Positions 10,515 through 17,013 of a stretch of DNA of 36,478 nucleotides are shown here, in pieces (position 1 is the stretch's first letter; the number at the start of each line of letters is the position of its first letter). Source of the stretch: Chthoniobacterales bacterium (GTDB lineage Bacteria; Verrucomicrobiota; Verrucomicrobiia; Chthoniobacterales; JAATET01). A program made the translations under genes and the position numbers. The stretch is from NCBI GenBank assembly GCA_036569045.1, contig DATCRI010000074.1, positions 1 to 36,478 of the forward strand, read 5' to 3'. The notes beneath the pieces were generated by a model, which was not told the DNA's origin, made no database searches, and saw only the letters and a program-made list of their open reading frames with translations.

Positions 10515-15203
<4,689 letters not shown>

Positions 15204-15228: not shown

Positions 15229-15263
15229 GCGCGTCCCCGATGAGGGGACGCGCTTTTCTTTTT
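15229..15263 (+). terminator. Intrinsic terminator of gltB
   Basis: A perfect 10-bp stem (GCGCGTCCCC at 15229-15238 with GGGGACGCGC at 15244-15253) encloses a five-base loop and is followed by TTTTCTTTTT. It lies 26 bases after the gltB stop. No T-run exists on the other strand, so it should work only for gltB. Confidence 0.93.
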
Positions 15264-15338: not shown

Positions 15339-16016
15339 CTACTTGCCGGCGCGCTGCCGCGTCCGCTCCGCGAGAATCACCACCGCTACGAGGAGCAGGC
15401 CAGGCAGCGCAATGGCCACGCCGCCGGGCAGGCGGTGGTTTAAGCCGCCCAGCACCGCCCCCCCGAAATACGCGGCCCAGGTGAGGAGGGGAAGCCAGGG
15501 CGTCTCCCGGGCGGGCGGCAGATCGGACATTGGCCCCCGAATTTTCCGGACGAGCCGGCTAATTCCCGTCGTGAGCGTGCCGGTGACAAAGACCGTGGAG
15601 ACGCCCGAGACACCGACCTGCTGCACGGCGGCGCTTTGCAGGCCCATGGCCGCCGATGTTGCCGCGACGAGACCGGGAAGAAACTGGCCGCCACTCAGGG
15701 CGATCACTCCGGCGCTCGCGAGCACCAATGCGGCGGCGAGAGCCAGCGCCATGCTGATCCGGGATGACCACCCCGGCCTGGGCGCGGCCACCAGCCAGGA
15801 GCCCACCGCCGCTCCCGCGCAAAATCCGCCGAAGGCGATGCCGGCGAGGGCTGCGCCACCGCCATGAGAGATCGCGATTGCGAGCACGACCGAGTTCCCG
15901 GTCATGTTGGCCGGGAAAACCCCGGCATCGATGAAGGCGATCGCATCCACGCAACCGGCCGCGAGACTGAGGAGGAGCAGACGAATGGCCAGCGGAAAGT
16001 CACGCGCGTCGTTCAC
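15339..16016 (-). CDS. YoaK/DUF1275 family membrane protein
   Basis: The 225-residue product is very hydrophobic with about six membrane helices. It shows the DUF1275 signature near the N-terminus: AAGCVDAIAFIDAGVFPANMTGN, in which the Asp after CV and the NMTGN are typical, and a second half with MGLQSAAVQQVGV and TVFVTGTLTTG. The family is widespread, and its function is unknown. The start is GTG (complement at 14-16 of 16014-16016), giving VNDARDFPLAIR; I found no better ATG. The BLUF-like gene lies upstream on the same strand with 66 bases between them, so they may be co-transcribed. Confidence 0.85.
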   Translation of the reverse strand: MNDARDFPLAIRLLLLSLAAGCVDAIAFIDAGVFPANMTGNSVVLAIAISHGGGAALAGIAFGGFCAGAAVGSWLVAAPRPGWSSRISMALALAAALVLASAGVIALSGGQFLPGLVAATSAAMGLQSAAVQQVGVSGVSTVFVTGTLTTGISRLVRKIRGPMSDLPPARETPWLPLLTWAAYFGGAVLGGLNHRLPGGVAIALPGLLLVAVVILAERTRQRAGK

Positions 16017-16082: not shown

Positions 16083-16562
16083 TTACACCGACGACCAGAG
16101 CGTGTTCGTCAGGCCGGAGGATCGGTAAAAGCTGCGCAGGAAAGTCCGCAGCTGAACCGAGAGATCGGGAAAGGCCACGTCGGGCGCGCGGCACTCCTCC
16201 AGCAGGTCGTTGAATCCCGGCAAGGTCTCCGGATGCGTTGTCTCGGCCGTTTTTCGGTATCCCATGCTCCAGTCCGGAAACGATCGCCGCGTCGTGGGGC
16301 CTCTCAGCAGGCAGATGACATTCCGATGGCGCGAATCCTTCAGAAGGCGTTCGCGGTAAAGCCATTCGATCGTCTCCCGCGCTCCCTCGATGACCTCGAG
16401 GAAATTCCCTTCGTGGTAAAGCAACAGGCCGGTGATGCCTCGTCGCTCGTTGTTTCTCCGACAGGTCACGAGCAAATTCGCGAGCTCCTGATTCGAGAGA
16501 AGGCGGGTCGCCGAACTCACGAATGTCAGTTGGAAAAGGTCGCGCTCGGGAGGGAAATCCAT
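16083..16562 (-). CDS. BLUF-domain protein lacking the photocycle Tyr and Gln
   Basis: BLUF domains bind FAD and sense blue light. The 159-residue product matches the fold from about residue 9 to 105: FQLTFVSSAT, SNQELANLL, CRRNNERRGITGLLLY, FLEVIEG, DSRHRNVICLL and RSFPDWSMGY. The flavin-binding Asn (37/38) and the RH and WSMG elements are kept. The Tyr essential for light activation is Phe14 and the Gln is Glu56; their 42-residue separation equals that in known BLUF proteins, so the alignment is firm. I checked both codons on the reverse strand (TTC and GAG). A normal red-shift photocycle is therefore unlikely; flavin binding could persist. A short C-terminal helix tail follows. No output domain is attached. 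Confidence 0.88.
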   Translation of the reverse strand: MDFPPERDLFQLTFVSSATRLLSNQELANLLVTCRRNNERRGITGLLLYHEGNFLEVIEGARETIEWLYRERLLKDSRHRNVICLLRGPTTRRSFPDWSMGYRKTAETTHPETLPGFNDLLEECRAPDVAFPDLSVQLRTFLRSFYRSSGLTNTLWSSV

Positions 16563-16704
16563 CTGAAGAAGAGGATTGGTAGCAAACTATCCGAATATTT
16601 CTGACGCGAAAGCGAATTATCCCATGAAGGAGAGGGAGTGAAACCCGAGGCACCACGACAAAAGACTCGTGCGGGCGTCGGCTTTGACGGAAAACGAAGG
16701 ATCG

Positions 16705-17013
16705 ATGCACTTTCTCGTTTCTGGTCTGATCCTGCTCTTCTGCCTGCCGGCATTCTTTGTCGAAGCCCGATTTCTCAAGGCCATCGTCGCCCTCGCGATC
16801 CTTGCGTTTGTCGGCGGGGCGCTGGCCCTGACGTGGGCAACCTGCTGGATTCCGGCCGATTTCCTCACGGCGCATCCCGAACTCGCGGATACCCCGCTGC
16901 ATCCAACGGTCGCGACAGCTCTGGGTGGCATCCTCGTTCTTTTCGGTCTGGGCCTGGCCCTCGCTCTGGGCACGCGAGTGCTTTATCGACACCTCCGCAT
17001 CATCAAGGACTAG
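16705..17013 (+). CDS. Small hydrophobic membrane protein, unknown function
   Basis: The 102-residue product has two or three membrane helices: about 2-17, 21-43 and 78-95. Between the last two is a short polar loop ([19 protein letters not shown]). The ATG at 16705 has a GAAGG four bases upstream; an in-frame ATG at 16669 would add 12 polar residues and lacks such a site. It is divergent from the BLUF-like gene (142 bases between starts) and 139 bases ahead of the hydrolase gene. I do not recognise a family. Hydrophobic segments and the ribosome site favour a real gene. Confidence 0.62.

What the first reader, a model, noticed from the sequence alone, without database searches (positions are those of the whole stretch)
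16083..16562. BLUF-fold protein without the photochemical Tyr and Gln
The flavin-binding framework (Asn37/38, ITGLLLY, DSRH, WSMG) is kept, but the essential Tyr is Phe14 and the Gln is Glu56, at the correct 42-residue separation. In known BLUF proteins, changing either residue removes the light response. The protein may be a flavin-binding, light-independent sensor, or may use a different photochemistry. It has no output domain, so it probably acts by protein contact; the DUF1275 gene just downstream is a candidate partner.
Basis: partly seen in the sequence, partly recalled or inferred. Interest (0 to 1): 0.62.

Follow-up and report, generated by a model that had tools for sequence, protein, structure and literature searches.

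The report
Light-sensor protein lacking its light switch
This bacterial gene encodes a small flavin-binding blue-light-sensor (BLUF) protein in which exactly the two amino acids that run the light switch have been replaced while the flavin pocket is otherwise kept; each replacement resembles a laboratory mutation reported to jam related sensors in the 'lit' position, so it probably signals without light, although only one genome shows it and nothing has been tested at the bench.

Summary
Window 16083-16562 (-) encodes a 159-aa protein with one BLUF domain (PF04940, 96 bits against a cut-off of 25). Phe14 (TTC) stands where Tyr belongs and Glu56 (GAG) where Gln belongs, 42 residues apart as in AppA (21/63) and PixD (8/50). 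The flavin-pocket Asn38, Asp76, Trp98 and Met100 are kept.

In a census of 300 non-redundant BLUF domains, 283 have Tyr+Gln. Five lack both, and each of those has also lost Asn, Trp or Met. The window protein alone lacks both with the pocket intact. It departs from consensus at 2 of the 15 columns conserved at 90% or more: the photochemical pair.

Phe/Glu does not define a clade: the only other case (L350) lies in a separate, decayed clade. The DUF1275 partner idea is not supported: no other fetched locus has BLUF beside DUF1275, and three sibling genomes keep DUF1275 without it.

Best explanation: a flavin-bound contact protein frozen near the lit signalling state, since PixD Y8F and AppA Q63E are each reported as locked in it. 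Main rivals are Trp98/Glu56 flavin photoreduction and early decay. New variant of a known kind; function untested.

The parts
16083..16562 (-). BLUF-domain protein gene, 159 aa, ATG start, TAA stop
   Evidence: ORF and PF04940 match, 96 bits; GC by codon position typical of coding
16260..16538 (-). BLUF domain (residues 9-101)
   Evidence: PF04940 1-92/92; AlphaFold2 pLDDT above 90 in every block of residues 11-90; Foldseek to AppA/PixD BLUF domains at rmsd 1.1-1.3 A over 94-97 columns
16521..16523 (-). codon 14, TTC = Phe, at the position of the photochemical Tyr (AppA Y21, PixD Y8, OaPAC Y6)
16395..16397 (-). codon 56, GAG = Glu, at the position of the photochemical Gln (AppA Q63, PixD Q50, OaPAC Q48)
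16449..16451 (-). codon 38, Asn, the invariant flavin-binding Asn (OaPAC N30)
   Evidence: N in 287 of 300 census domains; role in PMC11533990
16269..16271 (-). codon 98, Trp (OaPAC W90, AppA W104): possible electron donor
   Evidence: W in 275 of 300; W90 as donor in OaPAC Y6F, PMC9486806
16263..16265 (-). codon 100, Met (PixD M93, OaPAC M92): relay from Gln to the C-terminal helices
   Evidence: M in 272 of 300; role in PMC5899715
16116..16205 (-). C-terminal tail with predicted helices (residues 120-149), as in short PixD/BlsA-like BLUF proteins
   Evidence: AlphaFold2, low to moderate confidence (pLDDT blocks 58-77)
15339..16016 (-). DUF1275 gene 66 bp downstream on the same strand; adjacency not conserved
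   Evidence: PF06912, 110 bits; siblings carry it without BLUF beside it

Best explanation
A short BLUF-fold protein that still has the residues for binding flavin (most likely FAD) but has lost the Tyr-Gln hydrogen-bond switch, so it should not show the normal 10-15 nm red-shifting photocycle. I think it most likely works as a light-independent contact protein held near the 'lit' signalling conformation: Glu56, if protonated, resembles the imidic form of Gln proposed for the lit state and bonds differently to flavin O4/N5 and to Met100/Trp98, and Phe14 removes the partner that holds Gln in the dark orientation. The signal would pass through Met100 to the last strand and C-terminal helices, and from there by contact to an unknown partner. 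Shown: both substitutions, the intact pocket residues, the fold (by prediction), the absence of an output domain, and that the exact combination is very rare. Inferred: flavin binding, the locked state, output by protein contact, the partner.
For: Substitutions and conserved pocket. Fold: (best solved matches include TePixD Y8F, OaPAC, bPAC, Slr1694). [quoted passage not shown]); [quoted passage not shown] also discussed in PMC6695109); the bPAC Y7F structure is described as pseudo-lit (PMC10837130); replacing the Gln abolishes photoactivation (PMC5899715). Not visibly decaying: outside positions 14/56 it misses 3 of 22 conserved columns, all I/L/V exchanges, against a mean of 2.7 for Tyr/Gln domains; its end branch (0.79) is near the median (0.73).
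Against: One sequence only: no orthologue, so no test of selection after the two changes. Both lock reports concern single mutants; I found no measurement of the Phe/Glu double. The two primary papers (Dragnea 2010; Masuda 2008) were not read, only papers that cite them. Not all such mutants lock: in BlsA, Q51A looked lit-like in the dark but Y7A and Y7A/Q51A did not (PMC6695109), and OaPAC Y6F is described as photoinactive. BlsA Y7/Q51 mutants were insoluble, so flavin binding could fail here too.
Confidence: 0.45

Rival explanations
1. Different photochemistry: with the fast Tyr route gone, excited FAD takes an electron from Trp98 and a proton from Glu56 and accumulates as neutral semiquinone (or goes on to FADH-), so that the protein is a photoreduction or redox sensor, much like cysteine-less LOV proteins.
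For: Trp98 is kept; the equivalent W90 becomes the electron donor in OaPAC Y6F, which reduces its flavin, and bPAC Y7F forms neutral semiquinone under blue light (PMC9486806). Replacing the flavin-contacting Gln of a LOV domain by an acid (iLOV Q489D) was enough to make photoreduction efficient (PMC5645311). Cysteine-less LOV proteins signal through the semiquinone (PMC4682037, abstract) and a natural Gln-less LOV receptor still responds to light (PMC9098866).
Against: No direct evidence. The Trp route in AppA is reported not to contribute to light sensing (PMC9486806). Whether Glu56 would be protonated is unknown.
Confidence: 0.25
2. Early decay: the two changes are the first hits in a gene no longer under selection, and the protein does nothing now.
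For: Each change is one base. The gene is absent in two of three sibling genomes, one of them only 84% complete; the third has a Tyr/Gln BLUF elsewhere, 42% identical. Other clades lacking Tyr/Gln have also lost pocket residues, so loss of photochemistry often goes with decay.
Against: Intact ORF, normal codon bias, average branch length, no other loss at columns conserved at 90% or more; hitting exactly the two photochemical columns of 15 has odds of 1 in 105 under random loss.
Confidence: 0.22
3. Flavin-free scaffold: the domain no longer binds flavin and serves only as a protein-binding module.
For: Degenerate BLUF-like clades in the same census lack Asn, Met or Trp and can hardly bind flavin in the usual way; BlsA Y7/Q51 mutants failed to give soluble protein (PMC6695109).
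Against: Asn38, Arg72, Asp76, Trp98 and Met100 are all kept here; Tyr->Phe mutants of bPAC and OaPAC hold flavin.
Confidence: 0.05
4. Sequencing, assembly or alignment error creates the Phe and Glu.
For: Single draft assembly; no independent copy was reachable.
Against: Alignment is gap-free at both sites in every method; two independent base errors at exactly the two photochemical codons are improbable.
Confidence: 0.03

Closest known systems
PixD/Slr1694 and TePixD (short BLUF photoreceptors)
   Same: Single BLUF domain plus C-terminal helices, no output domain; Asn, Trp and Met of the pocket; about 30% identity; fold match
   Different: PixD has Tyr8/Gln50 and a red-shifting photocycle with PixE as partner; here Phe/Glu and no PixE-like neighbour was identified
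PixD Y8F / TePixD Y8F / bPAC Y7F / OaPAC Y6F laboratory mutants
   Same: Phe at the Tyr position; a Phe-bearing bPAC chain is the best sequence match among solved chains and TePixD Y8F (8i98) is among the best structural matches
   Different: Engineered single mutants that keep Gln; here natural, with Glu as well
AppA Q63E laboratory mutant
   Same: Glu at the Gln position; described as locked pseudo-lit
   Different: Engineered; only the Gln was changed
Cysteine-less or Gln-less LOV proteins and iLOV Q489D
   Same: Flavin sensors lacking a residue once thought essential; an acid in place of the flavin-contacting Gln promotes photoreduction
   Different: PAS-type fold, FMN, not homologous; analogy of chemistry only
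Degenerate BLUF-like clade in the order of G786 (L349, L350, L353, L354, L356, L363, L366, L367)
   Same: Lack Tyr and/or Gln or the strand that bears the Tyr; L350 even has Phe/Glu
   Different: Most have also lost the flavin Asn and Met; separate clade at support 100/99

Membership tests
BLUF domain family (PF04940), by sequence and fold | Pfam profile match over the curated cut-off | tested here: met
   96-97 bits, cut-off 25, full length 1-92
BLUF domain family (PF04940), by sequence and fold | Ferredoxin-like BLUF fold | tested here: met
   AlphaFold2 model confident over residues 11-90; Foldseek rmsd 1.1-1.3 A to AppA and PixD over 94-97 columns
BLUF domain family (PF04940), by sequence and fold | Conserved flavin-pocket Asn, Asp (DxRH), Trp, Met | tested here: met
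   N38, D76, W98, M100
BLUF photoreceptor (functional class) | Photochemical Tyr | tested here: not met
   Phe14
BLUF photoreceptor (functional class) | Photochemical Gln | tested here: not met
   Glu56
BLUF photoreceptor (functional class) | FAD bound | not testable with these tools
   Needs purified protein; pocket residues are compatible
BLUF photoreceptor (functional class) | 10-15 nm red shift on blue light | not testable with these tools
   Needs UV-visible spectra; not expected without Tyr and Gln
Phe/Glu subfamily of BLUF | Several members forming one clade | tested here: not met
   One other Phe/Glu domain in 336 (L350), in another clade
BLUF-DUF1275 system | Conserved neighbourhood | tested here: not met
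   BLUF beside DUF1275 only in the window's own genome among 231 fetched loci longer than 2.5 kb (most of them BLUF loci); three siblings have DUF1275 without BLUF beside it

The most novel reading that the evidence does not exclude
A natural BLUF protein that has swapped the hydrogen-bond switch for flavin redox chemistry: Trp98 as electron donor and Glu56 as proton donor make a long-lived neutral semiquinone, so the domain senses light by photoreduction, or cell redox state in the dark, in the manner of cysteine-less LOV proteins.
Probability: 0.2. Interest if true: 0.7.

Novelty: new variant of a known kind. Interest (0 to 1): 0.42.

Why it matters
BLUF photochemistry is understood almost wholly through engineered mutants. 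Here nature seems to have made the two best-studied mutations at once and kept the rest of the domain. If it binds flavin and signals, it is a natural light-independent or redox BLUF, parallel to the cysteine-less and Gln-less LOV proteins, and a ready test of whether the BLUF output needs the Tyr-Gln switch at all. The readings can be told apart with one purified protein and a spectrophotometer.

Tried and rejected
1) Phe/Glu as a clade: rejected by census and tree. 2) DUF1275 partnership by conserved adjacency: rejected. 3) Orthologue in sibling genomes: G001 and G003 have no BLUF; G002's BLUF is Tyr/Gln, 42% identical, in another place, and groups with a protein of another family. 4) Homologues in viral contigs: none; plasmid hits are all under 60% identity and their residues were not read. 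5) RNA elements in the window: none over the gathering score. 7) Dragnea 2010 on AppA Q63E: not held, so it is cited only through other papers. 8) Promoter scan around the gene: no sigma-70-like site. 9) Literature searches for natural BLUFs lacking Tyr/Gln found no clear report, but the library holds only open papers.

Full report
CHECK OF THE OBSERVATION. The reading frame 16562->16083 on the minus strand is intact and encodes 159 residues. It matches the Pfam BLUF profile from first to last position with 96 bits (cut-off 25), and it is the only BLUF gene found in its own genome. Residue 14 is Phe (TTC) in the Tyr column and residue 56 is Glu (GAG) in the Gln column; the spacing of 42 equals that of AppA (21/63), PixD (8/50) and OaPAC (6/48). 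tblastn, an HMM census, a 27-protein MAFFT alignment and phmmer against solved chains all agree, without gaps near either site. There is one extra residue at about 70-72 relative to most relatives, before the DxRH motif.

HOW UNUSUAL IT IS. I gathered BLUF domains from genomes of the window's genus, order, class and phylum, from 28 unrelated genomes found by similarity, and from three other orders. After removal of redundancy at 80% identity, 300 near-complete domains remained, the window's own not counted. Tyr is present in 288 and Gln in 289; 283 have both. Five lack both (L208, L350, L206, L207, L356) and each of these has also lost Asn, Trp or Met. Of 14 that lack Tyr or Gln, one (L203, Tyr/Gly) keeps Asn, Trp and Met; of the 283 with both, 259 do. 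The window protein, with neither, keeps all three. At the 15 columns conserved at 90% or more it departs at two, the photochemical pair (1 in 105 for a random pair). At the other 22 columns conserved at 60% or more it has three departures, all I/L/V exchanges, like an average Tyr/Gln domain (mean 2.7). Because I deliberately fetched low-scoring domains in two orders, the census if anything overstates how common non-canonical domains are. Glu at the Gln column occurs once more, in L350.

PHYLOGENY. A tree of 104 rows, with the two trait columns left out, puts the window protein among Tyr/Gln proteins without strong support for any sister; its end branch (0.79) is near the median (0.73). L350 falls in a well supported clade (100/99) of eight degenerate domains, all from the order of G786. 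So Phe/Glu arose at least twice and does not define a subfamily. The tree has few columns and many open forks; only the separation from the degenerate clade is firm.

STRUCTURE. AlphaFold2 on an alignment of 27 proteins gives high confidence over the domain (blocks of 91-96 over residues 11-90) and low to moderate confidence for the tail, where helices at 120-149 are predicted. Foldseek finds BLUF structures at the top, at 1.1-1.3 A over 94-97 columns for AppA and PixD chains; TePixD Y8F is among the best. By sequence the best solved chain is a bPAC entry with Phe at the Tyr position.

SURROUNDINGS. The DUF1275 gene (15339-16016, minus; PF06912) starts 66 bp downstream on the same strand, so co-transcription is possible, but the three sibling genomes carry DUF1275 (52-59% identical) with no BLUF beside it, and none of the other fetched BLUF loci has DUF1275 near it. 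Glutamate synthase (10515-15203, plus) lies beyond it, convergent, with a strong terminator-like hairpin at 15229-15253. The small upstream gene 16669-17013 (plus) has no Pfam match. Adjacency alone is no evidence of partnership.

MECHANISM. In BLUF photoreceptors light drives electron and proton transfer from Tyr to flavin through Gln, which then rotates or tautomerises; mutation of Tyr abolishes the red shift and mutation of Gln abolishes photoactivation (PMC5899715). With Phe and Glu, that switch should not run (inference from these families). What then? [quoted passage not shown] discussed in PMC6695109). bPAC Y7F was crystallised in what a later paper calls a pseudo-lit state (PMC10837130). 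A protonated Glu has a hydrogen-bond pattern like that of the imidic form of Gln (my inference). Another line points to redox: OaPAC Y6F reduces its flavin with W90 as donor and bPAC Y7F forms neutral semiquinone (PMC9486806); an acid in place of the flavin-contacting Gln made iLOV photoreducible (PMC5645311); and LOV proteins without their 'essential' residues still signal (PMC9098866, PMC4682037). I give the locked, light-independent contact protein about 0.45, photoreduction or redox sensing about 0.25, and early decay about 0.2.

WHAT IT WORKS LIKE AND WHAT IT IS. By profile, fold and pocket it is a member of the BLUF domain family. By the defining Tyr-Gln pair it fails the test for a BLUF photoreceptor of the known kind; flavin binding and spectra could not be tested here. 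It may work like the locked PixD Y8F and AppA Q63E mutants, or like cysteine-less LOV proteins; both are analogies, not memberships.

LIMITS. One draft genome; no orthologue; no bench data; the primary lock papers were read only through citing papers; the literature library is open-access only; metagenome contigs were not available, and the census (300 domains) is small beside the number of BLUF domains known.

VERDICT. Observation confirmed. Interpretation partly supported: loss of the canonical switch, with light-independent signalling or altered photochemistry as the alternatives, is right; the clade and DUF1275-partner ideas fail. A new natural variant of a known kind, of moderate interest, cheap to test.

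Noticed in passing
L349, L350, L353, L354, L356, L363, L366, L367 (order of G786): A well supported clade (100/99) of BLUF-like domains that lack Tyr and/or Gln (or the Tyr strand) and mostly the flavin Asn and Met; some lie in tandem with other BLUF-like genes. Looks like a repurposed, probably flavin-free BLUF branch.
   Followed up: partly
L206, L207, L209 (G785); L373-L375 (G1380, G1200, G1304): Two further groups of degenerate BLUF-like domains with Tyr, Gln or other pocket residues lost; G785 also carries normal BLUFs.
   Followed up: no
L203, about 300-600 (G793:C244:8596-8868): BLUF with Tyr kept but Gly at the Gln column and pocket Asn/Trp/Met intact, in a frame of 407 codons: the other 'clean' non-canonical case in the census.
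   Followed up: no
window 15229-15253: Strong terminator-like hairpin with T-run just after glutamate synthase (GCGCGTCCCCGATGAGGGGACGCGC TTTTCTTTTT).
   Followed up: no
window 10560-13871 (-): 1103-codon open frame antisense to glutamate synthase; almost surely a G+C-rich shadow frame.
   Followed up: no
L013 4650-4961; L051; L056: BLUF relatives with in-frame stops in the matched stretch (the L013 second copy also has Cys at the Tyr position): likely pseudogenes or draft errors.
   Followed up: no
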